Shown one piece after another: positions 2,608-63,739 of a stretch of DNA of 64,000 nucleotides. Source of the DNA: Cordylochernes scorpioides (taxonomy: Eukaryota > Arthropoda > Arachnida > Pseudoscorpiones > Chernetidae). Position numbers and translations under genes: made by a program. The DNA lies in the NCBI GenBank assembly GCA_030710605.1, contig CP092870.1:57903057-57967056 (forward strand), read 5' to 3'. The notes beneath the pieces were generated by a model, which had not been told where the DNA came from, did no database searches, and saw only the letters and a list, made by a program, of their open reading frames with translations. The first letter of the stretch is position 1. The number at the start of each line of letters is the position of its first letter.

Positions 2608-2681
2608 GTCCAGGATAGCCTAGTGGACATGGCACCTGCCCGGTAAGCAGAAGGTTGTGGGTTCGATTCCCGCTCCTGGAC
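2608..2681 (+). tRNA. tRNA-Thr(GGT)-like sequence, array copy 8
   Basis: Consensus copy in the last unit of the right arm. All stems and the 'ccggtaa' loop are as in copy 5. Confidence 0.6.
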
Positions 2682-2901
2682 ACTTTTATTTTTCCGTTCG
2701 CCATTACTCTTCATATTTTTCACCTTCCATACGTCATCCATTCATATATAGACCATCACTCTTCATATATTCAACCTTTTCATACGTCATCCAAAAAGTT
2801 AGAAATATTAAATTATTTCTCTTTGAAATTAAAAATGATTTTTCATAAATAAAAAGAAACTTATGCGGTTAAACTGGTTGTATAGCTTTATAATTGATAT
2901 T

Positions 2902-9999: not shown

Positions 10000-10147
10000 G
10001 GAATAAAAGAAGAAAATAATTAATTAAAGAAGGTAAGTGAATATTCAAATATTTCTTCCTATTGACGACGCCATAAGCTCGCAACTAGGCTTAAGAAATT
10101 ACCCCACGTTTTGAAAATTTTCTGTAATAGTGTAATATCGTTTCAAA

Positions 10148-10735: not shown

Positions 10736-11918
10736 TGCAACAGCTTTTAAGGCAACAGCTAACTACAATTGGAAGAAAAACAAAACATGCAACTATTGCA
10801 AAAGACCTGGTCATTTTTGGCCAGAATGTAGAAATAGACTGAGAGACCAAAAGCAGAAAAATAAGAACTCTCTTCAAGCAGAAAACAGAGACATGAATAG
10901 ATCAAGAAAACATGAAGACAGTGGAAGGAGTGCATTCATTTGTGAAAATGAGGTTTTGTCTTCAATCAAAGATGTGTGGTACCTCGACAGTGGTGCATCC
11001 GAGCACATGACAAATCGAATAGACTGGTTTTCAGAATTCAATGAACTTGATGAAGAATACCAAGTCAAGCTAGGAGATAACCATGTCATCAATGCTTCTG
11101 GAAAGGGAACCATTTTGATCTCATGTTATGTTGACGGTGAATGGACAAAAGGAATATTAAAGAATGTGTTATATGTGCCAGAAATTCATAAAAATCTCTT
11201 CTCTGCCGGAGCAGCAACAAATTTGGGAAATAAAATAATAACAGAAAAGGAAATCTGTAATATCTTCATGAATGACAAGAAAGTTGCCTGTGGAACTAAA
11301 GGATCAAATAACTTGTACACAATGCTCTTCAAGGTAACACATGAGGCTGAAGCCAATACTGCAAATGCGTACTCTCTCACATGGTGGCATCGTCGAATAG
11401 GACACATCAATGTGGACACAATCAGGATGATGGCCAAAAATGGACAGTTTAGTGATCTTAAGCTGAAAGAAGAAAAGGATTTCTTTTGCGAGGCCTGTAG
11501 GTACGGAAAACAACAATGCCAATCATTCCGCTCCATCGAGAATAAACAAAAGTATGAGGTAGGTGAATTAATTCATTCTGACCTTTGTGGCCCAATGGAA
11601 TCTCAGTCATTAGGAGGTTCAAATTACTTTCTTCTTTTTAAAGATGATCAAAGTGCATACAGAGTTGTTTACTTTATAAGGCATAAAAGTGATGTGTTCA
11701 CTAAATTCAAAGAATTTGATGCCCTAATTAAAAATCAGTTTGGCAGATCAGTTAAAATTTTCAGAACTGATAATGGAACTGAATATGTCAATCAATCGTT
11801 TTTAGATTATTTAAGAAAGAATGGCATAATTCATGAAAGATCTGCTCCTTATACGCCCCAACAGAATGGCTTTGTTGAAAGAGATTTAAGGACTATTTTA
11901 GGACTTAGTCGATCAAAA
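10636..11918 (+). pseudogene. pol: Copia Gag C-terminus, protease and integrase segment
   Basis: An open frame runs from 10569 to 11939, with meaningful sequence from about 10636. It encodes the Gag zinc knuckle, then an aspartic protease with 'WYLDSGASEHMT' (Asp codon at 10986). Next comes the GAG-pre-integrase H/H/C/C module ('WHRRIGH' to 'CEACRYG'), then the integrase core. The catalytic residues are visible: Asp at 11580 ('HSDLCGP'), Asp at 11769 ('RTDNGTEY') and Glu at 11877 ('NGFVERD'), giving a D-x35-E spacing. A frameshift near 11908-11918 ends the frame. Confidence 0.92.
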
Positions 11919-13126
11919 TGCTACATGACTCAGGGCTAGAAAAGAATCTGTGGGCAGAAGCTGTTAACACAGCTGTCTATGTTCTTAATAGAACACTTTC
12001 AAATAACGAGAAAACTCCTCTTGAACTTTGGAGTGGCAGAAAGTCAACTTTCAAACATTTCAAAATCTTTGGTTCTGAAGCCTATGCTAATATACCTAAA
12101 CAATTTAGGTCAAAATGGGATAGTAAAACAAAGAAAATGATATTCGTTGGATATGAGCATACTTCTAAGAATTATAGACTTTATGATCCTAAATCCGGAC
12201 AGATTGTAGTTTGTAGAAATGTAACTGTAAGAGAACCCAATCCAGTTGACACATGCGACACTCAGATGAAAATTGCACCTATATCAATTGAGAGTGAGGG
12301 ATCGTCGCAACATCAAGATGAGGATTCTACTCAGGAGGGAACGTGTGGGCCAACTCACTCATCCAATCTTAGACCTAGAAAGACATCACAGTGTGATGTT
12401 GCTAGTGCATGGATAGCTGAAAGCCTAGAGCCAGTTACTTATGAGGAAGCAATGTCTAGTAAAGATAAAATAAATTGGGAAATTGCTATGAATGAAGAAA
12501 AACAGGCTCTTATTAAAAATAAAACATGGAAATTGATGGACCTTCCTGATAATGCAAAAGCTATAGGATGTAAATGGATTTTCCGCATAAAAAGAAAAGG
12601 CAATGGTGAAATTGATCGTTATCGAGCAAGACTGGTGGCCAAAGGCTTCAGCCAAAGAAGAGGTATAGACTATAAAGAGACTTTTGCCCCAGTTGTAAGA
12701 TATGACTCAGTCAGAGTCTTGTTAGCCTTAGCTACTGTCATGGACATGGAAATTATGCAATTCGACATAAAGACTGCTTTTCTTAATGGTGATCTTGACG
12801 AAGATATCCATATGCAAATTCCAGAAGGAATAGAAGTTGAAAATAAAAACTTGGTTTGTAAACTAAAGAAAAGTTTATATGGACTAAAACAATCACCCAG
12901 AATCTGGAATGAGAAATTCATATATTTCTTAAAACAATTTCAGTTAACCCAATCACAAGCTGATCCATGTGTGTTCTACCAAACTAAGACTGATGCGAAA
13001 ATATTCTTAGCTCTTTATGTAGATGATGGTATAATGATGAGTACTTCAAACAACCTGTTGAAGGAATTAGCCCAATATCTGTCCTCACATTTTGAAGTCA
13101 CCATCCCACGCAAAACCAGTTTGTAG
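11918..13126 (+). pseudogene. pol: Copia integrase C-terminus and reverse transcriptase segment
   Basis: It continues the polyprotein after the second frameshift: 'LWAEAVNTAVYVLNRT', then the copia-type RT from 'WIFRIKRKGNGEIDRYRARL'. It includes the palm motif 'QFDIKTAFLNGDL' and the YVDD active site at 13016-13027. The frame fails near 13108-13122. The RT would copy element RNA into cDNA inside particles. Confidence 0.92.
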
Positions 13127-14010
13127 GCTTAGAGATAGATAAAGACAAAGAAAAAGGTCTCATATTTCTAAGTCAAACCAGTTATATAAAAAGAATACTT
13201 GATAAATTCAACATGACTTCATGCAATTCTTCAGGGACTCCTGTTGACCCCAACATGAAATTGACAAGAGAGAACATCAATGATACTCATGACATGCATA
13301 ACGTTCCATATGCTGAAGCTATTGGATGTTTGATGTTTCTTGCCGTCTGTACAAGACCTGACATAGCTTTCGCCGTTAACAAGCTAAGTAGATTCATGGC
13401 AGCTCCTGTTCTCACACATTGGAATGCTCTGAAAAGAATCTTCAAATATTTGAAAGGAACTTTGGACTCCGGCATCCTATACAAAAGAAAAGATGTGATT
13501 AAATTAATTGGATACTCTGATGCTGACTTTGCTGGTGACATTGATACACGACGGAGCACTTCAGGATACATATTCCTACTTGCAGGAGGACCAGTCACTT
13601 GGACTAGCCAAAGACAATCAGTTGTGGCTTTATCTACCACAGAAGCCGAATACATTGCAGCAAGCATGGCTTCAAGGGAAGCTGTATGGCTTAAACTACT
13701 GATCAAGGAACTGACACCCAATGATAATCCTGTTCCTTTGATGATTGACAACCAGAGTGCTATTAGACTGATCTTGAACCCAGAATTTCACAAGCGCACT
13801 AAACATGTTGATGTCAAGTTTCACTTTATACGTGAACAGCACAAAATGAAAATCATCAAGATATTCAACTGTCCAACAGAAGAACAATTGGCTGATCTTC
13901 TCACAAAGGCTCTACCAGCAACACGCTTCAAAATACTTTTTAAAGACATTGGAATGTCTGCCTTGCTTTCAAGTGGAAGTGTTGAAGAGTTAAAGCAAGA
14001 CGACACGTGA
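13123..14010 (+). pseudogene. pol: Copia RT C-terminus and RNase H segment
   Basis: In the third frame, 'VGLEIDKDKEKG' resumes the RT connection, followed by 'ARPDIAFAVNKLSRF'-like sequence (written with CTRPD here). The RNase H domain has 'GYSDADFAGD', 'STTEAEYIA' and 'KHVDVKFHFIREQ'. The stop at 14008-14010 lies about 30 bp inside the 3' LTR, so the last ten residues are LTR-encoded. Confidence 0.9.
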
Positions 14011-25038: not shown

Positions 25039-25260
25039 TGATACGTGCTGTAAATATCTCAAAATTATTATTCTCATATTTAACTTTTCATAGAACTTTA
25101 TTCCAATAATCATCCTCACTTGGCATTGTTTACACGAGGACTTTGTAAAATGGCGGACGTTGGTTAAATATAAAAAACTAACGAGACATACATTCTTGAT
25201 TATTTATTTCCTTTACATTAAAAATAGCTAAAAAAGAAAAACTTACATACATCCGCAACA
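25039..25260 (+). repeat. 5' LTR of the RT-less Ty3-type element
   Basis: 222 bp, matching 27848-28069. It starts TG and ends CA as is usual. It contains 'aaaatggcggacgttgg'. Confidence 0.9.
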
Positions 25261-25264
25261 TACT

Positions 25265-25280
25265 TGGCGCAGCCGAAAGG
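25265..25280 (+). promoter_or_regulatory. Primer-binding site
   Basis: 'tggcgcagccgaaagg' begins four bases after the LTR. The TGG start fits the CCA end of a tRNA, and 'tggcgcag' resembles sites assigned to tRNA-Ser in some insect Ty3-type elements. The exact tRNA cannot be fixed from here. Confidence 0.6.
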
Positions 25281-25372
25281 ATACGAAAGAAAATTAAAAA
25301 GGTAAATTTTTAATCAAAAGATTATATATTTCAAATTTAAATAACTCATTTATAAACATCTTTATTTTTATA

Positions 25373-27808
25373 ATGGCAAATATACATAGATTTGAAAAAT
25401 ATTCTGGCAGTAAGAATAATATAAAAATTGAAAGTTGGATTAAGTTGTATGAAGTAGAAAATTTAAAAGCAAACGATGAAGAAAAAATACACAATCTTAT
25501 CTACTATTTAGCAGATGAAGCCTTAGAATTTTTTGCTGATGAAATTCTTACAAATGCACATATAAAAAAATGGGAAACTGTAAAAGATAAACTCATTGCC
25601 AGATTTAAGCCTTGCACATATAGTCCCATTGTATTAACATCTAGCAGAAAGCTCCTTGCAAGTGAAACTGTGGAGACTTATTTTAAAGAAAAAATGGACT
25701 TACTGAATCAAACATCCTTGAAAAAGGAAGAGAAAATACAGCTACTAACAGATGGGCTACCTTTGAATTGGAGGGATGTGTTTGCAGCAGCACAACCTGC
25801 AGATCCAACCAAATGGATACAAGTTGCACTTTCTGTTGAGCATAACAGGCAACAAAGTAAGCTAAGAAATTTGTTTAAACCCAAAGTGTGCACTCTATCT
25901 CAACAGGAAAGATCAGCTTCAAATTGCCCATTTTTCTGCCCAATTTGCATGAAGAAAATAATTAAAGTGAAACATTGGTTGAATAAATGTCCTGATTATG
26001 ACCCAAATTATAAAACAGAAAGATCATCTAAAAATACACAACCAAAACAATTCATTACAACAGTCACAGAATCAACCACAAGTAATGAAACAAACAAAGT
26101 AACTTGCTTATCAACTAACAATCCTCCTAATAAATTGATAGACTTTAAAATTTGTGTCAACAAACATCCTTTACAAGCCTTCATAGACACAGGTGCTACC
26201 ATATCTTTAATAAGTCAAAATTTAATAAAAAGTTTGAATTTACATCCTTTAATAGATTCTCCCATGCAAATTCAACAAGCTAACTCATTAACCAAAACTT
26301 TGGGATATGTTCATGTAAATTTGCAAATTCATAATAAAACTAGAAAGGTCAAACTTCATGTAATACCTAATTTAAAATTCCAGCTACTCATTGGCTTGGA
26401 TATTGCAGAAGACTTTGAACTTATTGTTGACACTAAAGATAAAACAGTCTACACTAAGCAATCAGCAGAAATGGCACTTGTTTGCACAACCTGTAATCAG
26501 TTGCAACAACAACAACAAAACCAGATCCAACAGCAACAACAACAGAACCAGATTCAACAACAACAACAACAGAACCAGATTCAACAACAGCAACAAAACC
26601 AGGTCCAACAGCAACAAAATCAGATCCAGCAACAACAGCAGCATCAGCTCCAGCAACAACACCAGATGCAACAGCAGCAGAGACAACAACATCAAAGACA
26701 GGCAGATCTCAGCTTCATTGAAGACCCTCAAGATCATCAAAACACAGTGATGGTCAAGAAGAGAGGACTACTCAGGGCTGTGGTGCCTGCTTCTTTTAAA
26801 GAACATGTTCTGAAGGAATATCATGATAACATGAGTCACCCATCCATGAACAAGACAGTCAAATTAATAGTTCCTTTATTTTGGTGGTCAGACATGGTAC
26901 AGGAAATTAAATCTTATGTGAGATCATGCAAGACATGTCAACTGACTAAATCATCTAACCAACCAACTCTAGGACAACTAATAATTCCAGACACAGAATT
27001 ACAACCAGCTCAAGTAATAAGTGCAGATACAATAGTTATGGGAACAGCAGCTGAAAAGACAAAGCACAAGTACATCCAAGTGTTCATTGATCATCTTACA
27101 AGATATGTTTGGGCATTTCCCACTATCAAAAACACAGCTCAAGCAACGCTACAATGTTTCAACAGAATCCTTCAAGTCTCGCTACCCATAAAACATATTA
27201 TCACTGACAATGGAAAGAACTTTAATTCCAAGGAATTCAAAAGGTGTTTGAAAGTTCATAACATCAAACAAACTTTCACCACACCATACCACCCCCAGAG
27301 TAATGGAATGTGCGAAAAGGTTAACGGAACAATCATGACCAAATTAAGAACGGCCTTGCTTGATAAACCGAAAGTGAAATGGAGCACACTTTTGCCCAAG
27401 GTCATTACTGACTACAACAACACCCCTCATGACGTAACAGGTTTTCCGCCATCTTTTCTACTTTTTGGTTACAATGTACAGCCACAATTTGCTGATAACC
27501 CCTCAACCTCGGTAGAAGATGCTAGAAAACTGGCTATAAAAAGAACTCAACATCAGCGTGATATTTCTAAAAGAAGACATGATTCAAGACATCCCGACAT
27601 TGAATTTAAAGTTGGAGATCTCGTTCTTAAAAGAATTCCCTACAATGATCCGAGGCTAATTAAAACAGCTCCCAAATACGAAGGACCATTCCAAGTTTTG
27701 AGAAGATTGTCTAAAGTGACTTACGAACTCTCTACAACGGATCAAGACAACCCACCAAGAAATCCCACAGGAGATCCTATAAAGGCTCACATCTCTCAAT
27801 TAAAGTAA
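25373..27808 (+). CDS. Gag-protease-integrase polyprotein without RT
   Basis: 811 residues, intact. Residues 1-190 form a retrotransposon Gag, followed by a zinc-knuckle-like CPICMKKIIKVKHWLNKC with a long spacing (CX2CX8HX4C). The protease active site is 'AFIDTGATISLIS' with Asp272, and 'LLIGLDIAEDFELI' follows. Residues about 377-445 are mostly Gln, where other Ty3 elements have RT and RNase H. Next come the integrase H2C2 zinc module (about 480-525) and a core with Asp552, Asp612 and Glu648 (D-x59-D-x35-E). The C-terminal module has 'YEGPFQVLRR'. All integrase catalytic residues are present. The start is the first ATG after the primer site in frame. Confidence 0.92.
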   Translation: MANIHRFEKYSGSKNNIKIESWIKLYEVENLKANDEEKIHNLIYYLADEALEFFADEILTNAHIKKWETVKDKLIARFKPCTYSPIVLTSSRKLLASETVETYFKEKMDLLNQTSLKKEEKIQLLTDGLPLNWRDVFAAAQPADPTKWIQVALSVEHNRQQSKLRNLFKPKVCTLSQQERSASNCPFFCPICMKKIIKVKHWLNKCPDYDPNYKTERSSKNTQPKQFITTVTESTTSNETNKVTCLSTNNPPNKLIDFKICVNKHPLQAFIDTGATISLISQNLIKSLNLHPLIDSPMQIQQANSLTKTLGYVHVNLQIHNKTRKVKLHVIPNLKFQLLIGLDIAEDFELIVDTKDKTVYTKQSAEMALVCTTCNQLQQQQQNQIQQQQQQNQIQQQQQQNQIQQQQQNQVQQQQNQIQQQQQHQLQQQHQMQQQQRQQHQRQADLSFIEDPQDHQNTVMVKKRGLLRAVVPASFKEHVLKEYHDNMSHPSMNKTVKLIVPLFWWSDMVQEIKSYVRSCKTCQLTKSSNQPTLGQLIIPDTELQPAQVISADTIVMGTAAEKTKHKYIQVFIDHLTRYVWAFPTIKNTAQATLQCFNRILQVSLPIKHIITDNGKNFNSKEFKRCLKVHNIKQTFTTPYHPQSNGMCEKVNGTIMTKLRTALLDKPKVKWSTLLPKVITDYNNTPHDVTGFPPSFLLFGYNVQPQFADNPSTSVEDARKLAIKRTQHQRDISKRRHDSRHPDIEFKVGDLVLKRIPYNDPRLIKTAPKYEGPFQVLRRLSKVTYELSTTDQDNPPRNPTGDPIKAHISQLK

Positions 27809-27832
27809 TTTATTCTCCGTGAATAAATGCAT

Positions 27833-27847
27833 CAAAGCGGGGGTAAA
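27833..27847 (+). promoter_or_regulatory. Polypurine tract
   Basis: 'aaagcgggggtaaa' lies directly before the 3' LTR, the expected place for plus-strand priming. Its presence shows that the replication signals are kept although the polymerase is absent. Confidence 0.65.
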
Positions 27848-28069
27848 TGATACGTGCTGTAAATATCTCAAAATTATTATTCTCATATTTAACTTTTCAT
27901 AGAACTTTATTCTAATAATCATCATCACTTGGCATTGTTTACACGAAGACTTTGTAAAATGGCGGACGTTGGTTAAAAATAAAAAACTAACGAGACATAC
28001 ATTCTTGATTATTTATTTCCTTTACATTAAAAATAGCTAAAAAAGAAAAACTTACATACATCCGCAACA
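27848..28069 (+). repeat. 3' LTR of the RT-less Ty3-type element
   Basis: 222 bp. Differences from the 5' copy include 'ctaataatcatcatcac' for 'ccaataatcatcctcac' and 'acacgaagac' for 'acacgaggac'. It is followed by an AT microsatellite. Confidence 0.9.
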
Positions 28070-28544
28070 ATATATATATATATATTCATTATACCATGTT
28101 TTCTGCTGTAGAAGGGCTTCCGTGCCCGAAAGCTAGAGAATTAAAGGTTTTTCGGAATACTTTTCCCTGTAGACCTGAGATATACATATATGTATTCATA
28201 AAAAGACATCTCTTTATCGTTCAACGGAAATTTTCTGATGGCTTGCGCCATCTGTCGGAATAAATATAAACTATTCTGTTGATTTCTAATTATTCTAGGA
28301 ATAATTATTCCAAATATTTCATCAGAAAACTTTAATTTCACAATCAGGAGATGCATTTTTTCTTAATTTATCTACCATATCCCAGTATAATTTCACATTT
28401 GTACTATTTTTTCTCCCCCGGAGCACAGGGCCTAAACAAACAAGATATCTAAAAAAGCAAGTCATCAATATACTAGGAGGTCTGTTGGTTTAAGCTATTA
28501 ACTGATGTAATAGAAGAAAAAAAGCTATTTTTCAAATATATGTA
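28070..28544. repeat. AT microsatellite and family B fragment
   Basis: 28070-28085 is (AT)n. 28085-28180 contains 'tgtagaagggcttccgtgcc'. 28190-28410 is a family B partial foldback ('gacatctctttatcg', 'cacaatcaggagatgc') with a shortened inner part. The remainder up to 28544 is unassigned. Confidence 0.6.
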
Positions 28545-29390
28545 TGTGGCAATATCGTTGCGGGGTTTCTTGTTGTTGGATGCGAATGGTGATATTTGGT
28601 TGAAGCGCAGTCGTTGAGTGGTAAGTGAAGCACACAGTTAGGAATAATCAGGACACGTGATTGTTTGAAAATAAAAGGCAACTGGATTGGAGGAAAGAAA
28701 GCTTGAGAAGGCGGAGCGATTTTGATTGTTAATTAACTGATCACATGGTGGTGATTGTACTTAGCTATGAGCTGAGCGGGGAGAGGTCCTGGGCCGATGT
28801 CACCTCGTTGGAAGTGAAGGAGCAACTCTAGGTGTTGTTCCTATGAGAGCTAAGACACTACTGACAATTCTTGTCTTTCGATTTAACACCAAACCTCAGT
28901 GTCTCTCTGATGGGTCGAGAGATGTCACATGATCTTTTTCTATTGGTTGACCTACTTAAGGTGCTATCTTCTGATAGGCCGGCGGCTTCCCTTGATGAAA
29001 GCTGTGCCCTGCCTGGTAGGAAGTGTCGAGTGTTATTTTTGACTTTATTTACTTCCGTGTTATCAAATACGTCCTATCTTTGCCGGAAGCATTGGATGTC
29101 TCTCAAACTTTTATAACTTTTGGTCACTCGACACGTCCTGTTTTTCAGGAAGTATTGAGTGCATCTTGGCTAAAATAACTTCTGTGGATACTAGAGACGT
29201 CCGGTCTCTGCCCCTGCAGTATTGACACAGGGGTGCCCAGAATAGTCGTGCCAATCTTAGATCTACTTCCTATATCTTAATGCTACTTGCTTCCCTCCAG
29301 TTACCTTGTTCTTTATTAAGTCTTTGAAAATCATACATGGTACATACATAGTGGGTCGGGGTTGCATTTAATTATATACAAATTATGACA
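28545..29390 (-). repeat. 3' LTR (left copy) of the defective LTR element
   Basis: 846 bp. On the minus strand it begins TGTCATAATTTG and ends GCCACA. It carries AATAAA on the minus strand (the inverse of 'ctttatta' near 29313). The 81-residue plus-strand frame inside it is also present in the other LTR and is not a gene. The adjacent purine-rich tract (minus 'gtagggggcgca') at 29391-29402 can serve as polypurine tract. Confidence 0.9.
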
Positions 29391-31008
29391 GATGCGCCCC
29401 CTACATGTGAAGAATTCAAGAAGGGGTTAGCCTGAGAGAATTCTGTAAAATGAAAAATAATTTTGTGGGAAAATTAGTTGTAGGTATTGAGGGGCTATAT
29501 ACAAGCATTGCTGGTGACATAAGTAAGATAGAATGGGGTTGATGATATAGGTTGAGTATAATTAATAGAAATCAAAAATTTTTTAATTGTAAGAAATCAA
29601 TGAATGTTATGGTACATAGTGGGTAAAACAAAGAAAATGCGCCTAAACGAATTCTACTCGAGATAAGAAATGATATCGAGGGCGTTCTATTAAGGCTTTT
29701 GAAATCAAATAAAAATAATATAAAAATAGTTGAATGAAATCAAAATTGAATGTGTTTGGTTGAAAAAAGAAAAATATTTTGTTGCATGGTGACAAAGACA
29801 ACTGCTTAGTTACTTTTTTGCTCGAATTCTGAGAAAAAGGAATCGAGGAAATTTCATAAGGTGCTTTGAAATCAGAACAAAATGAAATAAGAAGTTGAAT
29901 GAAATCAAAATTGAATGTGTTTGGTTGAATGGTGAGAGAAAAAAAAAAAAAAAAAAAAAAGGAAAAATGCCTAACCATATTCTAGCTCGGAATTGGGAAT
30001 GGAAACCGAGGGAATTTTATTAGGGCTTGTGAGAAATCAAAATAAAAATAAGAATAAAAGTTGAACGAAATCAAAGGTGAGTGCTTGAAAAAAGGAAAGA
30101 TGAAAAATAAAAAGGTTTTAACAATAAAGGGTGATTTAATGTTTTTAGTTTAATCGAAAACCAGTGGGTTTTCGTTGATAATTGAGTTGTGGCAATTTAA
30201 GCTAAGTGGTAAATAGATTGATAATTGATAAATAAAAATGATAATATAAACTAATTGGAAAAAAAATGATAATTAATGATTAAAAGTGGTAATAAGTTGA
30301 ATAAATTGATAAATTGATTAAGTATTTAAATTTTAATTGAGAAAAATAATGAAAATGATTGATGTGAAAAATAAGGTATATTGGTTTGAACCCTTTGGTA
30401 TCTACATGCCCTGATCTAAATGTATTGATTGTTCCATTTTGCCCTATAAATGTTTTACTTGCTCAATTATGCCCTATAAATTTTTTGTCTCGTCTGTAGC
30501 GACACTTAGGTGAAAAACGTGATTCTAGCCCTTAAGTGCGTTTATGCTGTGTACAGGAGACATGGAATTCTATATAACCTTTATGTGTAATTTTTTGTCT
30601 TTGTGTGTGTGTTGTGAAAAAAATGTTAGAAGTCGGTTGTGTAAGAAATGTGTGAGTGAATTCTATGTGTTGTCTCGTATATGTGTAATTGGTTGGTAAA
30701 AAATCGATATGTAGACTCGAACTGGAATCAAAATCGGTGGTATAGCGAGGTTCCCAGTTGACCTCAATAGGGGATCTTCTCATTGTAATTAGAGATACGG
30801 AAGTGGGGTGTGTCGGGCAAAAGAGAGGGAGGGAAATTGGAGATCGGACGAGGGCGCTCCGCTTTGTTTACAGAGGCCGAATTTATCGCTGCGAACTACA
30901 CTTCCGTCGTGGTGTCTCAAATTCTCGTTTCCTGCCGTCTATTTATTTTTGGTGCGGCTCAGATCTTGTTTTTGGAGCGTGATTTCTTCGACACTGGTTG
31001 GTTATCTT
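29391..31008 (-). other. AT-rich 3' region of the defective LTR element
   Basis: No conserved domain is seen. It includes an A-run of about 22 at 29938-29960 and repeats of 'gaaatcaaaattgaatgtg' (29737 and 29907). A GC-richer patch at 30800-31000 has several short frames on the plus strand that I do not consider genes. The function could be packaging or spacing, or simply decay. Confidence 0.5.
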
Positions 31009-33423
31009 TCAGTTACTGCTATCTTTTCGGAGTTTATTTAGATTTTCTGCGAAGATGGTTCCTAAAATTATGAGAAGTTTTATAAATGTTTGTCCACAAT
31101 GAAGAATTGCTTGTCCACAATGAAAAATTGTTTGTCCAAAATTAAAAATTGCTTGTCCTAGATTAAAAACTACCTCTTGTAGTTCGAAGATTTTCTGCGC
31201 GGGCATGGCATATATAAACAAGTAATTGATGAATAAAATTGGAATACAGTTGTATGGCAGAAGTAACAAACAAAGGATGAAAATCAGATGAAAAATAGGG
31301 TATTGCCCCATGTTCGTCCACATTTTTGTAACTGGGGACTCTGAAATATTGGCTTGAACCTTATGAATTGTAGAATTTGAATGATTGGTAGGTTCGCAGT
31401 TCTCCTGTTTGATATCTTTAGGGAGTGGTGTGATATGATTGAGCTGGTTGTCAGGTTTGCAGTTCTCCTGTTTGATCGTCAATGGTTTTATTAGAGATAT
31501 GTCGGCGGTAATTGGTTTAGGTTGAAATGTGTGATCTTTTCTCTGACGTGGATGTGGTAATTTTGGCATTGTTTGTGTTATGTGTACGCTGTGTTTTATG
31601 TACGAATTTTGTTTTGTTTGGGTACCTGTGTCGGTATTTTTACGTGCAGGTTGTTTGTATTCATCGATTCTTCTAGCGAATCGGCAGGTGGGGCAGGTTT
31701 TTACCTGTTTTGCGATGTCTTGTGTCATGTTCTGCCAATAATATTGTGCTGAGATGAGTCTCGTCATCTTGGAGATGTTTGGGTGGTGGTGTTGTGTGTG
31801 TACGGACTTAAGAAGTCTGGTTGTAAATGAATTTGGGACTATAGTTTTAAGTACTCCTTTTCGGGAGACGGTGCGCAGTTTATTGGGATCCATAGTCACG
31901 CGGGATTTTCCCGGTGGAGAAGATTGTTGGTTCTTTATGAGTGGCGCATCTAGAAAGCCACAAAATGGGATACGAGTTACAACGCCCGTTTCATATTGTT
32001 GTACTCCATTTATGCTACGGACCTCATATTCGTATCTTGACAATCTTAACCTCCATCGAAACAATCTGCCTGACGGAGCTTTGATCTCTTTCAACCACTG
32101 CAATGCGGGATGGTCAGAAAATATTGTAAACTTTCTGTCCATTAGACAGGTGCGGAAATTATCCACACTTTCCACAATGGCTAGGCATTGTAGTTCCAAG
32201 TCTGAATAATTTCGCTCGTGACTACGCAGAGATCGGCTGAAATGTTGGACGGTGTATGTCTTCCCATCAGGGTAGGCTTGTTTAAGAACGCCTGTAATGC
32301 TGAATGTTGAGGTGTTACAGTACACCTGGCATGGCAGACCTTCCTGGTAAAGGTGTAATGTGGGGTGTGTGGTAAGGTTTTCTTTCAGATTAGTGAACGC
32401 TTTCTGGCATTCGTCATCCCAGACCCACATGATATCCTTTTTTAGAAGGTTGATAAGTGGCGTCCGCAAGCGGGCGTGGTCTGGAATGAATTCTTTATAG
32501 ACGTTCACAGTTTTTAGGAAAGATCGTAATGTTTTTCGATTGTGTGGTTGTTTGGTGGCGTGAATTTTTTCTATGTTTTGTGTAGATGGGATGATTGTAT
32601 TATCCTTAACGGTTGTGCATGCGCTTGTTTGTTGTTGTTGTCTTTTGGCGTGCGTGTTGCGTTTGTTGTGCGGGTTGTGCGTGTTTGTTGTGTGGTGGCG
32701 TATGGGTGCGTGTATGTTGTGAGATACATTTGCGTGTTTATGGCGTTGCGAAATATGGTCATTTGTGGATTTTGTGTGGTAAGTGGGTGAACTGTGTCGG
32801 TGTACGGACACTTTTTTGGGCATTATTGGAATTGTAGGTTGGAGTCGTGGTGGCTTTATATGTGGTGGGCATAAAGTATTGGCAATTGGGTTGAGTGAAA
32901 AGTTGCGTGGTGTGAGATTAGAATGGTGGCATGTAAATATTTGGGGTTTGGGCAATGAATGCAGGCAAGGGTTTCCATGTGTGAAAGCTTTGGGTGCTGT
33001 GCGAGTCCTTTGGGACAGGTTTTGGCCTAGCCCGTGCTTGCATTCATTTGACACATGTTTAAAGTGGTAGATGGTATTAGACAATGGGACGCCAAGTTGG
33101 AAAATAGTGCCGCGATTATAATTTAGTTTTAATTTATATTGATAAAGGGTTTTTAAGGTAAGAACTCCAAATGGCAAGGATGCATTTACCACGTGGAAGT
33201 TCTCTCTACGGGTTATTTGGCCTATTGTCAGAGGGAAAGTTAAATGTCCTATTATTTTCGTAAAACTATTTAGGGGGGATAGATCAAGGGAAGGTTTTTT
33301 AATACTTAAATTGGGGAGTTGTGCTTTTAATCTATTGTATAAATGATACGGCAATATGTTCGAACCTGCGTCTGGTTCAATGAGAAAGGTGCATGGTAGG
33401 TCCTGGGTCAGATACAAGTCCAA
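31009..33423 (-). CDS. Defective Pol: protease-like, RNase H and integrase zinc module
   Basis: 804 residues, open throughout. Near residue 18 'FLIEPDAGSNILPYHLY' resembles a retropepsin with DAG in place of DTG. Residues about 130-300 are a His/Asn/Pro/Lys-rich linker where the RT palm should be. Homology resumes at the RT connection ('NVYKEFIPDHARLRTPL') and RNase H. There the first catalytic Asp is Asn ('VYCNTSTFSITGVL'), while Glu ('SDLELQCLAIVES') and Asp ('FSDHPALQWL') remain. An integrase zinc module (about 540-582, 'CPTCRFARR') follows, then another polar linker in place of the catalytic core. Residues about 707-739 are hydrophobic and membrane-like, followed by 8-residue repeats such as 'NFGQTIFHCGQAI'. 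Confidence 0.8.
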   Translation of the reverse strand: MDLYLTQDLPCTFLIEPDAGSNILPYHLYNRLKAQLPNLSIKKPSLDLSPLNSFTKIIGHLTFPLTIGQITRRENFHVVNASLPFGVLTLKTLYQYKLKLNYNRGTIFQLGVPLSNTIYHFKHVSNECKHGLGQNLSQRTRTAPKAFTHGNPCLHSLPKPQIFTCHHSNLTPRNFSLNPIANTLCPPHIKPPRLQPTIPIMPKKVSVHRHSSPTYHTKSTNDHISQRHKHANVSHNIHAPIRHHTTNTHNPHNKRNTHAKRQQQQTSACTTVKDNTIIPSTQNIEKIHATKQPHNRKTLRSFLKTVNVYKEFIPDHARLRTPLINLLKKDIMWVWDDECQKAFTNLKENLTTHPTLHLYQEGLPCQVYCNTSTFSITGVLKQAYPDGKTYTVQHFSRSLRSHERNYSDLELQCLAIVESVDNFRTCLMDRKFTIFSDHPALQWLKEIKAPSGRLFRWRLRLSRYEYEVRSINGVQQYETGVVTRIPFCGFLDAPLIKNQQSSPPGKSRVTMDPNKLRTVSRKGVLKTIVPNSFTTRLLKSVHTQHHHPNISKMTRLISAQYYWQNMTQDIAKQVKTCPTCRFARRIDEYKQPARKNTDTGTQTKQNSYIKHSVHITQTMPKLPHPRQRKDHTFQPKPITADISLIKPLTIKQENCKPDNQLNHITPLPKDIKQENCEPTNHSNSTIHKVQANISESPVTKMWTNMGQYPIFHLIFILCLLLLPYNCIPILFINYLFIYAMPAQKIFELQEVVFNLGQAIFNFGQTIFHCGQAILHCGQTFIKLLIILGTIFAENLNKLRKDSSN

Positions 33424-33460
33424 AGTTAATTTGATGATGTCATTGGGTGGATTGCCTACC

Positions 33461-33937
33461 TTAGTCTCGAAAAGTCTCCATTGTGGCGTCTTCGGCTTGG
33501 TGTGGCTGGCTTGGAATATCTGTTGAACCGGATCGGGACCTTTTGCACTGTCCGCGCGATTGAAAGGGAAATCTAGTCATTTGTACTGCTTCCATTCGAG
33601 TGGATCGCGTTGTCGGTACACTGGGTCCGTGTCGCGTGGGTTGCTTCCGTGTGTACTGGTACGGCATGGCGGGTGGCGATAACTCGGTGGGCGTCAGGTT
33701 GTTCGGACACGTACCGGCGGTGCGGGCGGCGGTTGTCCCGAGGGTGGCGCTCCGGAAGACCGCTTCCAGTTGCGTGGATCTTGCCCCTTGTAGCGCGGCG
33801 GTCAGTTCTAAAATTACCGTCGCCAGGGTATGTCTTGTCGCTTCGTTCGTTGTCAGCTTCTTTCCGTTCGTTGCCAGTTCCTTCTCTCTTGGGTTGTCAT
33901 TGCCTTTTGTTGTGCTGGTGCCTGGGTTAATTTCCAT
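33461..33937 (-). CDS. Short Gag-like or leader protein of the defective LTR element
   Basis: 158 residues starting 'MEINPGTSTTKGND', located just downstream of the 5' LTR in the transcribed direction. It is Thr/Arg-rich and ends shortly before the Pol frame, in a different frame. I recognise no capsid domain or zinc knuckle, so a Gag role is inferred from position only. Overlapping plus-strand frames of 106-148 residues are shadows. Confidence 0.45.
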   Translation of the reverse strand: MEINPGTSTTKGNDNPREKELATNGKKLTTNEATRHTLATVILELTAALQGARSTQLEAVFRSATLGTTAARTAGTCPNNLTPTELSPPAMPYQYTRKQPTRHGPSVPTTRSTRMEAVQMTRFPFQSRGQCKRSRSGSTDIPSQPHQAEDATMETFRD

Positions 33938-33987
33938 CTTTATCCTGATTAAGCTCTATAATCTTTATCCTGTCGACTTAACCGTTC
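33938..33987 (-). promoter_or_regulatory. Expected primer-site region, no clear match
   Basis: Reading on the minus strand after the LTR end GCCACA comes 'gaacggttaagtcgacagg'. No TGG start is present and I cannot assign a tRNA. Either an unusual primer is used or the site is altered. Confidence 0.4.
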
Positions 33988-34833
33988 TGTGGCAATATCG
34001 TTGCGGGGTTTCTTGTTGTTGGATGCGAATGGTGATATTTGGTTGAAGCGCAGTCGTTGAGTGGTAAGTGAAGCACACAGTTAGGAATAATCAGGACACG
34101 TGATTGTTTGAAAATAAAAGGCAACTGGATTGGAGGAAAGAAAGCTTGAGAAGGCGGAGCGATTTTGATTGTTAATTAACTGATCACATGGTGGTGATTG
34201 TACTTAGCTATGAGCTGAGCGGGGAGAGGTCCTGGGCCGATGTCACCTCGTTGGAAGTGAAGGAGCAACTCTAGGTGTTGTTCCTATGAGAGCTAAGACA
34301 CTACTGACAATTCTTGTCTTTCGATTTAACACCAAACCTCAGTGTCTCTCTGATGGGTCGAGAGATGTCACATGATCTTTTTCTATTGGTTGACCTACTT
34401 AAGGTGCTATCTTCTGATAGGCCGGCGGCTTCCCTTGATGAAAGCTGTGCCCTGCCTGGTAGGAAGTGTCGAGTGTTATTTTTGACTTTATTTACTTCCG
34501 TGTTATCAAATACGTCCTATCTTTGCCGGAAGCATTGGATGTCTCTCAAACTTTTATAACTTTTGGTCACTCGACACGTCCTGTTTTTCAGGAAGTATTG
34601 AGTGCATCTTGGCTAAAATAACTTCTGTGGATACTAGAGACGTCCGGTCTCTGCCCCTGCAGTATTGACACAGGGGTGCCCAGAATAGTCGTGCCAATCT
34701 TAGATCTACTTCCTATATCTTAATGCTACTTGCTTCCCTCCAGTTACCTTGTTCTTTATTAAGTCTTTGAAAATCATACATGGTACATACATAGTGGGTC
34801 GGGGTTGCATTTAATTATATACAAATTATGACA
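33988..34833 (-). repeat. 5' LTR (right copy) of the defective LTR element
   Basis: 846 bp, with no difference seen from 28545-29390. It is followed by the TGTA target duplication. Confidence 0.9.
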
Positions 34834-34837
34834 TGTA

Positions 34838-36225: not shown

Positions 36226-36714
36226 TAATATCTTCAGTCTATTCCAAAAAGAGCTCCAGACTTGCGATGGAGTCAACAAACGACCTTGGTCAGGTGAAAG
36301 TAAGTCTCAGACTAATGCCCTCAGTCGATGGCTGACCGAAGAATGAGGAATGACATGGGTGTTGCCAACAGCTCGTTATGGACCATGAAGAAGTGGATGG
36401 ATGCTCTCCGCGCCTTGATTTGCATATGTCGCTCCGAGGGGCACGACCTTGATATACGACCGTCTTTCTGTCTCAGCAGGCGATCCTCCTAGAAGAAGTG
36501 AACTTAATGGCTTCCAGAAAGTTCCATTAATCCAAAGTGCTTTCAGTCCTCTACGCTTTCTGAATACTAATTATATAACAATAGGTCGAAAATCTTTGGG
36601 AAATTATAGGTTGAAACTGTCTAGAAAACTGCATTAATAAATCTTGGAAAATGGATAATATACAAGGCGGTCCTGAAAGTTCATAAAAACTTGCAAAAAT
36701 TTGAATTTGGATAT
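36226..36714. other. Unassigned sequence with a possible transposase relic
   Basis: Around 36320-36410 the plus strand reads 'MADRRMRNDMGVANSSLW', which resembles a helix-turn-helix segment of a mariner-type transposase in a broken frame. The evidence is weak. The rest, including a 62-residue frame at 36449-36637, is not recognised. Confidence 0.25.
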
Positions 36715-37885
36715 AGAGTAGAACCTCCTTTTAGTGAATATCTCTCCTAAAAGAAGAGTTTTCATTTGCAAAATCATCATTTTTAGTATTTAGAAAATAT
36801 CCGGTAAGAGGACACCTCTCCCTAAAGGACACTTTGGCTCTGTAACTAGGTATTTTCCTTTACAGAGAGGTAATTCTACTGTAGCTGCTCTCCCTAAAGG
36901 ACACTTTGGTTCTGTAACTAGGTGTTGTCCTTTAAAGAGAGGCAGTTCTACTGTAGCTGCTCTTCCTAAAGTACACATTAGCTCTGTAACTAGGTGTTGT
37001 CCTTTACAGCGAGGTAGTTCTACAGTAGCTGCTCTCCCTAAAGAACACTTTGGCTCTGTAACTAGGTGTTGTCCTTTACAGAGTGGTAGTTCTATTGTAG
37101 CTGCTCTCCCTAAAGGACACTTTGGCTCTGTAACTAGGTGTTGTCTTTCACAGCGAGGTAGTTCTACTGTAGCTGCTCTCCCTAAAGGACACTATGGCTC
37201 TGTAACTAGGTGTTGTCCTATACAGAGAGGTAGTTCTACTGTAGCAGCTCTCCCTAAAGGACACTTTGGCTCTGTAACTAGGTGTTGTCCTTTACAGCGA
37301 GGTAGTTCTACTGTAGCTGCTCTCCCTAAAGGACACTTTGGCTCTGTAACTAGGTGTTGTCCTTTACAGGAAGGTAGTTCCACTGTAGCTACTCTCCCTG
37401 AAGGACACTTTGGCTCTGTAACTAGGAGTTGACCTTTACAGAGAGGTAGTTCTACTGTAGCTGCTCCCTCTGAAGGACACTTTGGCTCTGTAACTAGGTA
37501 TTCTCCTTTACAGAGAGGTAGTTCTACTGTAGTTGCTCTCCCTAAAGGACATTTTGGCTCTGTAACTAGGTGTTGTCCTTTACAGAGAGGTAGTTCTACT
37601 GAAGCTGGTCTCCCTAAAGGACACTTTAGCTCTGTAACTTGGTGTTGTCCTTTACAGGGAGGTAGTTCTACTGTAGCTGCTCTCCCTAAAGGACACTTTG
37701 GCTCTGTAACTAGGTGTTGTCCTATACAGAGAGGTAGTTCTACTCTAGCTGCTCTCCCAAAGGACACTTTGGCTCTGTAACTAGGTGTTGTCCTTCACAG
37801 AGAAGTAGTTATACTGTAGTTATTCTCTTAAAGGACACTTTAGCTCTGCAATTAGGTGTTGTCCTTTACAGAGAGGTGTTTTCGA
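36715..37885. mobile_element. Pogo-type MITE with 15 tandem copies of its end
   Basis: It starts 'gtagaacctccttttagtg'. From about 36800 a 72-bp unit ('ctgctctccctaaaggacac', 'ggctctgtaactaggtgttg', 'cctttacagagaggtagttc') is repeated about 15 times. Every unit contains the right terminal repeat 'gaggtagttctactgta'. Since 72 is divisible by three, a 191-residue minus frame stays open (repeating 'GQHLVTEPKCPLGRAATVEL'), but I see no sign that it is a real protein. Confidence 0.8.
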
Positions 37886-40465: not shown

Positions 40466-40651
40466 TATAATCAAATGGTAAAATAGCTGCCAAAGAATTA
40501 GGTATCACATACAATAAAACTTCTCATTAAAAAAAGAGAGAATTTTGTTAGCAAAGCTCTGTCGACCTTCCAGCGATGTGGCAACGGGAGTAATTAGCCT
40601 TTGCTGCCAATCAACAACTTCCTCAACACAATCAGCACCGGGCTAATTGTT

Positions 40652-42212
40652 GTCAGGTCTTTGTACAGAATCCCGGGAGAAACAAGGGCAGAATTTAGCC
40701 ACCATGTTTGGTCCCAATGTTGTCAGGTCTTTGTACAGAATCCCGGGAGAAACAAGGGCAGAATTTAGCCACCATGTTTGGTCCCAATGTGGTCAGGTCT
40801 TTGTGCAGAATCCCGGAAGAAACAAGGGCAGAATTTAGCCACCATGTTTGGTCCCAATGTTGTCAGGTCTTTGTACAGAATCCCGGGAGAAACAAGGGCA
40901 GAATTTAGCCACCATGTTTGGTCCCAATGTTGTCAGGTCTTTGTACAGAATCCCGGGAGAAACAAGGGCAGAATTTAGCCACCATGTTTGGTCCCAACGT
41001 TGTCAGGTCTTTGTACAGAATCCCGGGAGAAACAAGGGCAGAATTTAGGCACCATGTTTGTTCCCAATGTTGTCAGGTCTTTGTACAGAATCCCGGGAGA
41101 AACAAGGGCAGAATTTAGCCACCATGTTTGGTCCCAATGTTGTCAGGTCTTTGTACAGAATCCCGGGAGAAACAAAAGCAGAATTTAGCCACCATGTTTG
41201 GTCCCAATGTTGTCAGGTCTTTGTACAGAATCCCGGGAGAAACAAGGGCAGAATTTAGCCACCATGTTTGGTCCCAATGTTGTCAGGTCTTTGTACAGAA
41301 TCCCGGGAGAAACAAGAGCAGAATTTAGCCACCATGTTTGGTCCCAATGTTGTCAGGTCTTTGTACAGAATCCCGGGAGAAACAAGGGCAGAATTTAGCC
41401 ACCATGTTTGGTCCCAATGTTGTCAGGTCTTTGTACAGAATCCCGGGTGAAACAAGGGCAGAATTTAGCCACCATGTTTGGTCCCAATGTTGTCAGGTCT
41501 TTGTACAGAATCCCGGGAGAAACAAGAGCAGAATTTAGCCACCATGTTTGGTCCCAATGTTGTCAGGTCTTTGTACAGAATCCCGGGAGAAACAAGGGCA
41601 GAATTTAGCCACCATGTTTGGTCCCAATGTTGTCAGGTCTTTGTACAGAATCCCGGGAGAAACAAGGGCAAAATTTAGCCACCATAATTGGTCCCAATGC
41701 TGTCAGGTCTTTGTACAGAATCCCGGGAGAAACAAGGGCAGAATTTAGCCACCATGTTTGGTCCCAATGTTGTCAGGTCTTTGTACAGAATCCCGGGAGA
41801 AACAAGGGCAGAATTTAGCCACCATGTTTGGTCCCAATGTTGTCAGGTCTTTGTACAGAATCCCGGGAGAAACAAGGGCAGAATTTAGCCACCATGTTTG
41901 GTCCCAATGTTGTCAGGTCTTTGTACAGAATCCCGGGAGAAACAAGGGCAGAATTTAGCCACCATGTTTGGTCCCAATGTAACAGTTCTTTGTACAGAAT
42001 CCCGCGAAAAACAAGGGCAGAATTTAGCCACCATGTTTGGTCCCAATGTAACAGTTCTTTGTACAGAATCCCGCGAAAAACAAGGGCAGAATTTAGCCAC
42101 CATGTTTGGTCCCAATGTAACAGTTCTTTGTACAGAATCCCGCGAAAAACAAGGGCAGAATTTAGCCACCATGTCTGGTCCCAATGTAACAGTTCTTTGT
42201 ACAGAATCGTAA
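40652..42212. repeat. 70-bp satellite array switching to 69-bp units
   Basis: About 19 units of 70 bp ('tctttgtacagaatcccggg', 'agaatttagccaccatgttt') run from about 40652 to 41980. Then about four 69-bp variants carry 'gtaacagttc' and 'cccgcgaaaaac'. The 70-bp part gives staggered 66-residue frames. The 69-bp part is in frame, so longer frames appear there. Units are nearly identical. I see no transposon end in the unit. The preceding 40470-40650 is unassigned. Confidence 0.9.
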
Positions 42213-48985: not shown

Positions 48986-49259
48986 TAACTATTTAATTTG
49001 TTTTTATAATGCTTGTTTAGGATGTCACAGTTCTTTAAGACCAAGGTATAGAAGAAATCTCATAGTTTCTGTGACGGCCAATATGTATATATGTTTATAA
49101 ATTTGTGGATGCCAAGAGGGTGGAAGTAACGGGAAGGGCAGAGTTCAGAGTAATTAGTCCCAAATTGAGATCGCCATGATGGATGGTTATCGTGGGAAGC
49201 TTTCGTGATTCCGGAAGGATCTCTCTCAAGAAGGATCTACATGGTTCGCATGTTTGGCA
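48986..49259. other. Unassigned sequence before the 33-bp array
   Basis: It appears single-copy in this window. 'agatcgccatgatggatggt' lies within. No gene is recognised. Confidence 0.35.
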
Positions 49260-50350
49260 TACTTTCTCCGCTACCTGGTTAGATGTAAGTTAAACTTTCT
49301 TTGTAGCTTGAATGTATGTCTGGTAAACTTTCTTGGACACCTGGATGAATGACAGGTAAACTTTCTTTGTAGCCTGAATGGATGTCAGGTAAACTTTCTT
49401 GGACACCTGGCTGGATGTCAGGTAAACTTTCTTGGACACCTGGCTGGATGGCATGTAAACTTTCTTGGACACCTGGCTGGATGTCAGGTAAACTTTCTTG
49501 GACACCTGGCTGGATGTCAGGTAAACTTTCTTGGACACCTGGCTGGATGTCAGGTAAACTTTCTTGGACACCTGGCTGGATGTCAGGTAAACTTTCTTGG
49601 ACACCTGGCTGGATGTCAGGTAAACTTTCTTGGACACCTGGCTGGATGTCAGGTAAACTTTCTTGGACACCTGGCTGGATGTCAGGTAAACTTTCTTGGA
49701 CACCTGGCTGGATGGCATGTAAACTTTCTTGGACACCTGGCTGGATGTCAGGTAAACTTTCTTGGACACCTGGCTGGATGTCAGGTAAACTTTCTTGGAC
49801 ACCTGGCTGGATGGCATGTAAACTTTCTTGGACACCTGGCTGGATGTCAGGTAAACTTTCTTGGACACCTGGCTGGATGTCAGGTAAACTTTCTTGGACA
49901 CCTGGCTGGATGTCAGGTAAACTTTCTTGGACACCTGGCTGGATGGCATGTAAACTTTCTTGGACACCTGGCTGGATGTCAGGTAAACTTTCTTGGACAC
50001 CTGGCTGGATGTCAGGTAAACTTTCTTGGACACCTGGCTGGATGTCAGGTAAACTTTCTTGGACACCTGGCTGGATGTCAGGTAAACTTTCTTGGACACC
50101 AGGCTGGATGTCAGGTAAACTTTCTTGGACACCTGGCTGGATGTCAGGTAAACTTTCTTGGACACCTGGCTGGATGTCAGGTAAACTTTCTTGGACACCT
50201 AAATGTATGTCAAGTAAACTTTTTTATGCACCTGACTTTATTCGGGAACCTTTTTTGGCCTCCAGAACGGGTGTAAGCTAAGCCTTCTTGACCGCATGGA
50301 TGAACGTTAGCTGAAATTTCTTTGCATCCTGAATGAATGTCAAGGAAACT
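49260..50350. repeat. 33-bp minisatellite open on both strands
   Basis: About 25 near-identical units of 33 bp ('ggtaaactttcttggacacc' plus 'tggctggatgtca') lie at 49382-50200, with diverged units at each edge. Because 33 is a multiple of three, it gives a 299-residue plus frame (MSGKLSWTPGW repeated) and a 302-residue minus frame (VSKKVYLTSSQ repeated). A variant unit with 'gatggcatg' recurs at irregular spacing. Both-strand openness argues for a satellite, not a gene. Confidence 0.85.
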
Positions 50351-63737: not shown

Positions 63738-63739
63738 TA

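What the first reader, a model, noticed from the sequence alone, without database searches (positions are those of the whole stretch)
28545..34833. LTR element with matching LTRs whose enzymes are hollowed out
Seen: 846-bp LTRs without a difference I could find, a TGTA duplication and an open 804-codon frame. Known: an autonomous Ty3-type element needs an RT palm and an integrase DDE core. Both are missing, each replaced by a polar low-complexity linker, while non-catalytic neighbours (RT connection, integrase zinc module) remain. The first RNase H Asp is Asn, and the protease has DAG. Inference: this protein may have become structural or regulatory for a parasite element that moves in trans. 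The membrane-like C-terminus with 8-residue repeats adds to the oddity.
Basis: partly seen in the sequence, partly recalled or inferred. Interest (0 to 1): 0.78.

Follow-up and report, generated by a model that had tools for sequence, protein, structure and literature searches.

The report
Gutted retrotransposon with a selected protein
This is one of about a thousand copies of a mobile element that has lost every enzyme it needs to move, apparently travels with the enzymes of a complete relative, and yet still carries a dead-enzyme protein whose folded parts seem to be kept by natural selection.

Summary
Window 28545-34833 (minus strand) is an LTR element with identical 846-bp LTRs, a TGTA duplication and an open 804-codon (855 stop-to-stop) pol frame without RT palm or integrase core. 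It is not a one-off: a marker of this hollow type (H) occurs 1,044 times in the genome, and 133 of the 150 best-scoring copies keep a frame of at least 795 codons. A full-length relative (F, about 8.3 kb, with RT, RNase H, zinc module and integrase) is present; two markers occur 578 and 622 times. F and H share LTRs, primer-site and polypurine-tract sequence and 3' region, and F/H recombinants exist, so their RNAs were probably co-packaged. H's RNase H carries D358N, E401Q and D469G (Ty3 numbering) in 33 of 33 copies; the first two are published RNase H-killing substitutions. Among H copies the folded pol domains show purifying selection (pN/pS about 0.3; neutral expectation about 0.66), while the linkers and gag remnant look neutral. 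Best reading: a trans-mobilised hyperparasite whose gutted Pol persists as a selected non-enzymatic protein. Precedents (Athila, IAP 1-delta-1) make it a new variant of a known kind. The protein's job is inferred.

The parts
33988..34833 (-). 5' LTR (element reads on the minus strand), TG...CA ends
   Evidence: identical to 28545-29390 over 846 bp
28545..29390 (-). 3' LTR
28541..28544 (.). target-site duplication TGTA, left copy (right copy 34834-34837)
   Evidence: sequence; in 17 other paired elements the four bases next to both LTR ends agree: TATA in 15, AATA in 1, TACA in 1
33963..33987 (-). primer-site position next to the 5' LTR (GAACGGTTAAGTCGACAGGATAAAG); the first 22 bases are the same in full-length L032 and L033
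   Evidence: priming tRNA not identified
29391..29415 (-). polypurine-tract-like sequence before the 3' LTR (GTAGGGGGCGC...), shared with the full-length elements
33461..33937 (-). ORF1, gag remnant (158 codons from ATG, 164 stop to stop); lacks most of the gag frame of F; neutral-looking (pN/pS 0.82)
   Evidence: no Pfam match
31009..33576 (-). ORF2, hollow pol, 855 codons stop to stop, +1 frame relative to ORF1; first Met at residue 252, so the N-terminal part can be reached only by frameshift or a non-AUG start
33085..33438 (-). protease-like domain with EPDAG in place of DTG; pN/pS 0.29 (residues 1-164)
32587..33084 (-). linker 1, its first 52 residues homologous to the PR-RT spacer of F; neutral-like (0.73)
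31972..32586 (-). RT thumb plus RNase H; D358N (codon 32314-32316), E401Q (32188-32190), D426 kept, D469G (31984-31986), Ty3 numbering; pN/pS 0.31
31669..31866 (-). integrase H2C2 zinc module
   Evidence: PF17921, 54 bits; CPTC in 32 of 33 copies, (the 33rd, L047, is frame-shifted before it)
31465..31668 (-). linker 2, where the integrase core is missing; neutral-like (0.91, wide interval)
31012..31464 (-). C-terminal tail shared with F: hydrophobic segment 31207-31308 and variable-number heptad repeats 31081-31188

Best explanation
A non-autonomous Ty3-type LTR lineage (H), derived from or related to a complete element (F) in the same genome, that lacks most of gag, the RT palm and the integrase core and moves with F's enzymes in trans. 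Shown here: shared ends with F, recent insertions, F/H recombinants, shared loss of RNase H and protease catalytic residues, and a deficit of amino-acid changes in the remaining folded domains of the pol frame. Inferred: trans-mobilisation itself; that the hollow protein is made (by +1 shift out of ORF1) and works without catalysis. Most likely mode, about 0.4 on its own: an assembly or packaging adaptor that joins F's Pol proteins through the retained protease-like, thumb/RNase H and zinc modules and favours the RNA it was translated from, as reported for the gag-pol fusion of mouse IAP 1-delta-1.
For: Partner: 4 of the 18 LTR-paired elements among the 40 best LTR matches are F-type, 2 of these 4 with an open 1,399-codon pol. 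L032 scores RVT_1, RT_RNaseH, H2C2 and rve and has YFDD and D-35-E. All 150 best RT matches are 100% identical to L032's RT piece; 93 of 150 lie in frames of at least 1,380 codons. Trans-mobilisation: LTR pairs of 17 elements differ by 0-4 bases, the window's by 0. By LTR or 3' region the nearest relative of several elements belongs to another class, for example 3' region L027 (H) to L032 (F) 0.5% and LTR L030 (H) to L029 (M) 1.1%, although the thumb-RNase H of H and F is only 68% identical. L039 and L040 are F gag-PR plus H middle; L041 is F, an H stretch at linker 1, F. By eye, 4 of 63 places of the F zinc/integrase-junction marker on contig C1 lie 0.9-1.7 kb downstream of an H marker. Selection: folded PR+RNase H+Zn in the 9 LTR-ascertained H copies 42 N:40 S against 72% N expected (P 5e-5; 8e-4 with ts:tv 3.3); linkers 66:24, as expected (P 0.55); folded versus linkers Fisher P 0.004. 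Core pN/pS 0.29 in 12 and 0.30 in 30 copies. Catalytic losses in 33 of 33 cores. D358N and E401Q abolish Ty3 RNase H (PMC5371799, passages).
Against: A third class (M, 5.2 kb; L029, L031, partial L043) shares the ends and has moved recently but has no conserved pol frame, so the hollow protein is not required for mobilisation. ORF1 looks neutral (24 N:11 S). Taken alone the N-terminal/protease part is weak (16 N:13 S, P 0.044 or 0.10) and its bootstrap interval (0.13-0.65) reaches the neutral value. H against the chimeras' H core gives dN/dS 0.41-0.49, against 0.20 for one F pair. RNase H changed faster in H than in F (16 against 5 sites, P 0.027). The tail is exchanged with F, so its conservation is not evidence for H. 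The N/S tests treat distinct variants as independent, and single-pair neutral simulations scatter widely (2.5% point 0.25). No expression data; the structure models were poor.
Confidence: 0.72

Rival explanations
1. Dead passenger: H is an internal-deletion derivative that moves in trans like ETn or cattle D-type elements; the frame is open only because copies are young and A/C-rich, and the protein does nothing.
For: LTRs of sampled copies are nearly identical, so copies are young. Linkers are A/C-rich and low in stops. M elements move without a frame. ORF1 looks neutral.
Against: Between-copy variation (median core pS 0.051) is far larger than LTR-LTR divergence (0-4 bases per pair), so it mostly arose in replicating lineages; in that variation folded domains have too few amino-acid changes while linkers do not.
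Confidence: 0.15
2. Interference: the hollow protein joins F's RT or integrase assemblies as a dead subunit and limits F, a copy-number control or competitor poison. [quoted passage not shown]
For: RNase H is killed by charge-neutral substitutions shared by 33 of 33 copies while the surrounding domain is conserved; Ty3 subunit roles in PMC5371799 (passages). That the retained modules would pair with F's is inference.
Against: H depends on F, so a general block of F hurts H unless it is local. RT fingers and palm are absent. No interaction data.
Confidence: 0.2
3. RNA-level constraint: translation through the RNA, or an RNA signal inside the frame, is what is selected; the protein sequence is incidental.
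For: ORF1 stays open in 9 of 9 copies while looking neutral. The 76 zinc-module codons show no change at all, not even synonymous, in the 9 LTR-ascertained copies, though other copies vary there.
Against: A need for an open frame alone would not spare amino acids in folded domains and release them in linkers of the same frame.
Confidence: 0.1
4. Unique deletion product, assembly artefact or single domesticated host gene.
For: None found.
Against: 1,044 marker places, reversed-pattern control 0; all 56 scored near-full-length matches at 95-100%, 54 without a stop; paired LTRs with matching 4-base flanks at 8 further H places.
Confidence: 0.01

Closest known systems
Mouse IAP 1-delta-1 elements
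   Same: Loss of part of gag and pol, dependence on other IAPs in trans, a novel protein from the remaining frame, and most new IAP insertion mutations are of this subtype (PMC6466679, passages; primary paper PMC2413153 not held).
   Different: 1-delta-1 is described as one 1.9-kb deletion giving a gag-pol fusion; here gag, RT and integrase are all gutted, the thumb-RNase H differs from the partner at about one third of residues, and RNase H is dead by point substitutions. A cis effect is reported for IAP, not tested here.
Non-autonomous Athila families of Arabidopsis
   Same: Non-autonomous LTR elements with intact frames under purifying selection and recombination with autonomous families (PMC2410132, abstract and sections 8 and 9).
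   Different: Athila non-autonomous copies keep gag or env and lack pol; here the kept and selected frame is a catalytically dead pol and gag is the part that has decayed.
Cattle ERVK[2-1-LTR] C/D pair, MusD/ETn, KoRV/RecKoRV
   Same: In cattle, defective elements outnumber competent ones, share ends with them and recombine with them; the three pairs are said to share a swapped old central segment (PMC10924933, abstract and passages).
   Different: Cattle D-type elements are described as lacking functional genes; here the central segment is an open frame with selected domains.
BARE-2, TR-GAG, LARD, TRIM (plants mainly)
   Same: Non-autonomous LTR elements thought to use partners in trans (BARE-2 seen as a citation in PMC11963269, passages; TR-GAG and TRIM in search listings; LARD and details recalled).
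   Different: As recalled, TR-GAG keeps gag only, LARD and TRIM are non-coding, BARE-2 cannot make GAG; none is known to me to keep a gutted pol.

Membership tests
Autonomous Ty3/gypsy LTR retrotransposon | LTRs with TG...CA ends and target-site duplication | tested here: met
Autonomous Ty3/gypsy LTR retrotransposon | RT palm with YxDD | tested here: not met
   no RVT_1; about 256 residues of the F pol are missing between A residues 314 and 322
Autonomous Ty3/gypsy LTR retrotransposon | integrase DDE core | tested here: not met
   no rve; core absent after residue 636
Autonomous Ty3/gypsy LTR retrotransposon | catalytic RNase H (D, E, D, D) and protease D-S/T-G | tested here: not met
   N, Q, D, G in 33 of 33 cores; EPDAG in 9 of 9
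Autonomous Ty3/gypsy LTR retrotransposon | primer-binding site complementary to a tRNA 3' end | tested here: inconclusive
   site does not begin with TGG; no tRNA comparison was made
Non-autonomous derivative mobilised in trans by a partner | partner with complete domains and matching ends in the genome | tested here: met
Non-autonomous derivative mobilised in trans by a partner | recent copies despite missing enzymes | tested here: met
   LTR pairs 0-4 differences; window pair 0 of 846
Non-autonomous derivative mobilised in trans by a partner | mobilisation actually depends on the partner | not testable with these tools
   indirect only: recombinants and shared ends
LARD / TRIM (non-coding) | no conserved coding frame | tested here: not met
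   133 of 150 best-scoring copies with a frame of 795 codons or more; purifying selection
TR-GAG | intact gag as the only domain | tested here: not met
   ORF1 truncated, neutral-like; pol remnant present
IAP 1-delta-1-like element with a helper protein acting in cis | deletion derivative with an open, selected frame | tested here: met
IAP 1-delta-1-like element with a helper protein acting in cis | protein raises mobilisation of its own RNA | not testable with these tools
   needs an experiment

The most novel reading that the evidence does not exclude
An entire pol polyprotein has been turned into a non-enzymatic accessory protein of a hyperparasite: protease, RNase H and integrase modules lost catalysis but keep their folds as pairing surfaces for the helper's enzymes, and the element's success depends on this protein. 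With 1,044 hollow, 578-622 complete and 654 non-coding marker places, one genome would hold a three-tier ladder of helper, protein-coding parasite and protein-less parasite sharing the same ends.
Probability: 0.4. Interest if true: 0.78.

Novelty: new variant of a known kind. Interest (0 to 1): 0.62.

Why it matters
Non-autonomous LTR elements are often treated as protein-less passengers. The coding exceptions I found or recall keep gag, env or a gag-pol fusion. Here a pol frame stripped of every catalytic function that was checked is the part selection keeps, next to a non-coding sibling class that moves without it. That gives a natural comparison in one genome for asking what a dead Pol contributes. 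It also recalls the retroviral connection subdomain, which resembles the Ty3 RNase H domain but lacks the catalytic residues (PMC5371799, passages).

Tried and rejected
Unique deletion and host-gene readings were rejected by copy counts. Composition alone as cause of the open frame was rejected for the whole frame (0 of 500 shuffles); alone, linker 1, linker 2 and the tail stay open in 3, 6 and 1 of 500. A first core estimate of pN/pS 0.58 (13 copies) included L047, whose frame is shifted after core residue 244; it was dropped, as were recombinants L039 and L040. L009 (frame broken at 730 codons) was dropped (19 of 20 kept). and most of the 30-copy set are biased because loci were picked by protein score. 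The 9-copy set came from the LTR search alone and holds every H-type element of that search. Of the 12-copy set, 9 are these and 3 (L045, L046, L048) were in both the 3'-region list and the RNase H list, so they are not free of protein bias. pN/pS of 1 is not the neutral value: simulation with the observed ts:tv gave 0.66 pooled. An early view that both linkers are ancestral was weakened on rechecking: the linker 2 query ran 8 residues into the shared tail; without them the match is weak.

Structure: the whole ORF2 model had mean pLDDT 28, the thumb-RNase H model 46. A Foldseek search of the second gave reverse transcriptases in its top seven rows, best E 2.5e-5, TM 0.29-0.38; not used as evidence. 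A search of viral contigs for relatives of the F core found none. The host species was not identified. No strong self-priming complement was found between the LTR and the primer-site region (best 9 bases). Paper searches showed Athila and IAP 1-delta-1 as the nearest cases and no selected, catalytically dead pol in a non-autonomous LTR element; only listings and the passages named were seen, so this is not proof that none is in print.
Full report
What is there. The window lies in an unnamed 2.62-Gb, 24-contig genome. The element at 28545-34833 reads on the minus strand. Its LTRs are identical over 846 bp and flanked by TGTA. ORF1 (33461-33937) overlaps ORF2 (31009-33576), which is in the +1 frame. 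ORF2 encodes a protease-like region, a polar linker, an RT thumb plus RNase H, the integrase H2C2 zinc module, a second linker, and a tail with a hydrophobic segment and heptad repeats. RT fingers/palm and the integrase core are absent.

It is a large family. A 24-mer present in 28 of 28 H-type loci examined (two of them the same place) and 0 of 9 other loci occurs 1,044 times exactly, reversed control 0. With a 230-aa RNase H piece as query the 150 best of 49,273 first-look candidates were scored; they are 96-100% identical and 133 of 150 lie in frames of at least 795 codons. An LTR search, which does not look at coding sequence, scored 40 of 5,867 candidates; these 40 places make 18 LTR-paired elements including the window, plus 4 unpaired LTR matches. 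I classed the 18 as 9 H, 4 F, 3 F/H recombinants and 2 M. All 9 H have an ORF2 of 820-862 codons; 2 of 4 F have an unbroken 1,399-codon pol; none of the 3 recombinants has an unbroken pol.

The complete relative. F elements of about 8.3 kb have a 325-380-codon gag frame (stop to stop) and a pol with a protease DTG (Pfam scores below the cut-offs), RVT_1, RNase H, H2C2 and rve, YFDD and a D-35-E spacing. The 150 best RT matches are all identical to L032's RT piece, and 93 of 150 have frames of 1,380 codons or more. Two F markers occur 622 (zinc/integrase junction) and 578 times (RT). A marker of the shorter M class occurs 654 times. Such counts depend on how conserved each 24-mer is. That F is active was not tested.

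Why trans-mobilisation. H, F and M share LTRs, primer-site and polypurine-tract sequence. Nearest relatives by LTR or by the last 600 bp of the internal region often cross classes: 3' region L027 (H) to L032 (F) 0.5%, LTR L030 (H) to L029 (M) 1.1%, while H and F are 68% identical in thumb-RNase H. L039 and L040 join F gag-PR to the H middle; L041 carries an H stretch at linker 1 between F gag-PR and F RNase H-integrase. Counted by eye on contig C1, 4 of 63 F-junction marker places lie 0.9-1.7 kb downstream of an H marker on the same strand. Template switching between co-packaged RNAs is the simplest cause; this is inference from established retroelement biology. The 17 other paired elements have matching 4-base flanks, TATA in 15.

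Dead enzymes. Aligned through Ty3 (7q5b and 4ol8), H has N at D358, Q at E401, D at D426 and G at D469, in 33 of 33 cores including recombinants L039 and L040 (of its two tables for the last position one is a residue off, the other gives G in 33 of 33). F keeps all four in L032 and L038. The review PMC5371799 (passages) states that D358N, E401Q and D426N eliminate Ty3 RNase H activity and D469N reduces it. The protease motif DTG of F is EPDAG in 9 of 9 H copies. As these losses and the missing cores are shared by the H copies, they predate the variation among them.

Selection. Among the 9 LTR-ascertained H copies pN/pS (bootstrap 95%) is 0.29 (0.13-0.65) for N-terminus plus protease, 0.73 (0.47-1.22) for linker 1, 0.31 (0.16-0.56) for thumb-RNase H, 0.91 (0.31-4.96) for linker 2 and 0.29 (0.17-0.52) for the tail. 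The zinc codons did not vary at all in these 9, though other copies vary there. Neutral expectation by this method is about 0.66 pooled. Counting distinct changes, folded domains have 42 N:40 S (expected 72% N; P 5e-5, or 8e-4 with a ts:tv of 3.3), linkers 66:24 (expected 73%; P 0.55); thumb-RNase H alone P 0.002 or 0.01, N-terminus/protease alone P 0.044 or 0.10; folded against linkers Fisher P 0.004. Twelve cores give 0.29 and 30 cores 0.30; how they were chosen is told under Tried and rejected. About 11 stop-creating changes would be expected beside the 242 changes seen in the 9 copies; none is present, and no H-type element of that search was left out. LTR pairs differ by only 0-4 bases, so most between-copy differences arose in replicating lineages. 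The tail is exchanged with F and cannot count for H. ORF1 is open but neutral-like (24 N:11 S, pN/pS 0.82), as if kept mainly as a path for ribosomes: ORF2 has no Met before residue 252 in 8 copies and 213 in one. H against F cores: pS 0.59, pN 0.19, with more Ty3-like residues lost in H than in F in RNase H (16 against 5, P 0.027), but not clearly in the protease (13 against 8) and not in the zinc module (5 against 8), the last two using neighbouring element B as outgroup. So RNase H is relaxed compared with an enzyme but not free.

What it probably does. The retained domains are ones expected, from their families, to pair or bind nucleic acid. The nearest tested precedent, IAP 1-delta-1, needs other IAPs in trans, and its fusion protein is reported to work in cis (PMC6466679, passages). 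I favour an adaptor that helps H RNA into F particles; a dead subunit that interferes with F is the main rival. Against both, M elements move without such a protein. No transcript, protein or function was tested.

Novelty. Athila (PMC2410132) already shows non-autonomous LTR elements with selected frames and recombination with autonomous kin, and cattle ERVK (PMC10924933) shows defective elements that outnumber competent ones. New here, as far as the searches named went, is that the selected frame is a pol with its catalysis gone, in about a thousand copies beside complete and protein-less siblings. Hence new variant of a known kind.

Noticed in passing
window 25039-28069 (+): A second gutted Ty3-type element next door: 222-bp repeats (98%) at both ends, one 811-codon frame with gag-like part, protease, a poly-Q stretch where RT and RNase H should be, then H2C2 and an integrase core. 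At least 41 near-full-length copies, 15 of 41 without a stop. Whether its domains are under selection was not tested.
   Followed up: partly
L029, L031, L043 (5.2-kb M class): Shorter elements with the same ends, remnants of linker 1 and (in L029, L031) the zinc module, and broken frames; marker occurs 654 times.
   Followed up: partly
flanks of L025-L041 and the window element: The 4-base duplication is TATA in 15 of 17 sampled elements (AATA, TACA in the others, TGTA in the window), so the family seems to target TATA or (TA)n sites.
   Followed up: partly
window 33963-33987: The primer site next to the LTR does not start with TGG, and two versions exist among copies (GAACGGTTAAGTCGACAGG and CAGAGTCGACAGG); the primer is unclear.
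   Followed up: partly
window 31081-31188 and F pol C-terminus: 21-bp heptad repeat whose copy number varies among H copies; common pol frame lengths in H and F are 7 residues apart.
   Followed up: partly
window 10136-14010 (+): A Ty1/copia-type element in three overlapping frames, probably broken (class by eye from the protein sequence).
   Followed up: no
window 108-2895, 36672-37835, 40508-42137, 49151-50308, 61997-63837: Large 352-bp direct and inverted repeats and minisatellites of 72, 70, 33 and 123 bp; several are open in more than one frame, probably by periodicity only.
   Followed up: no
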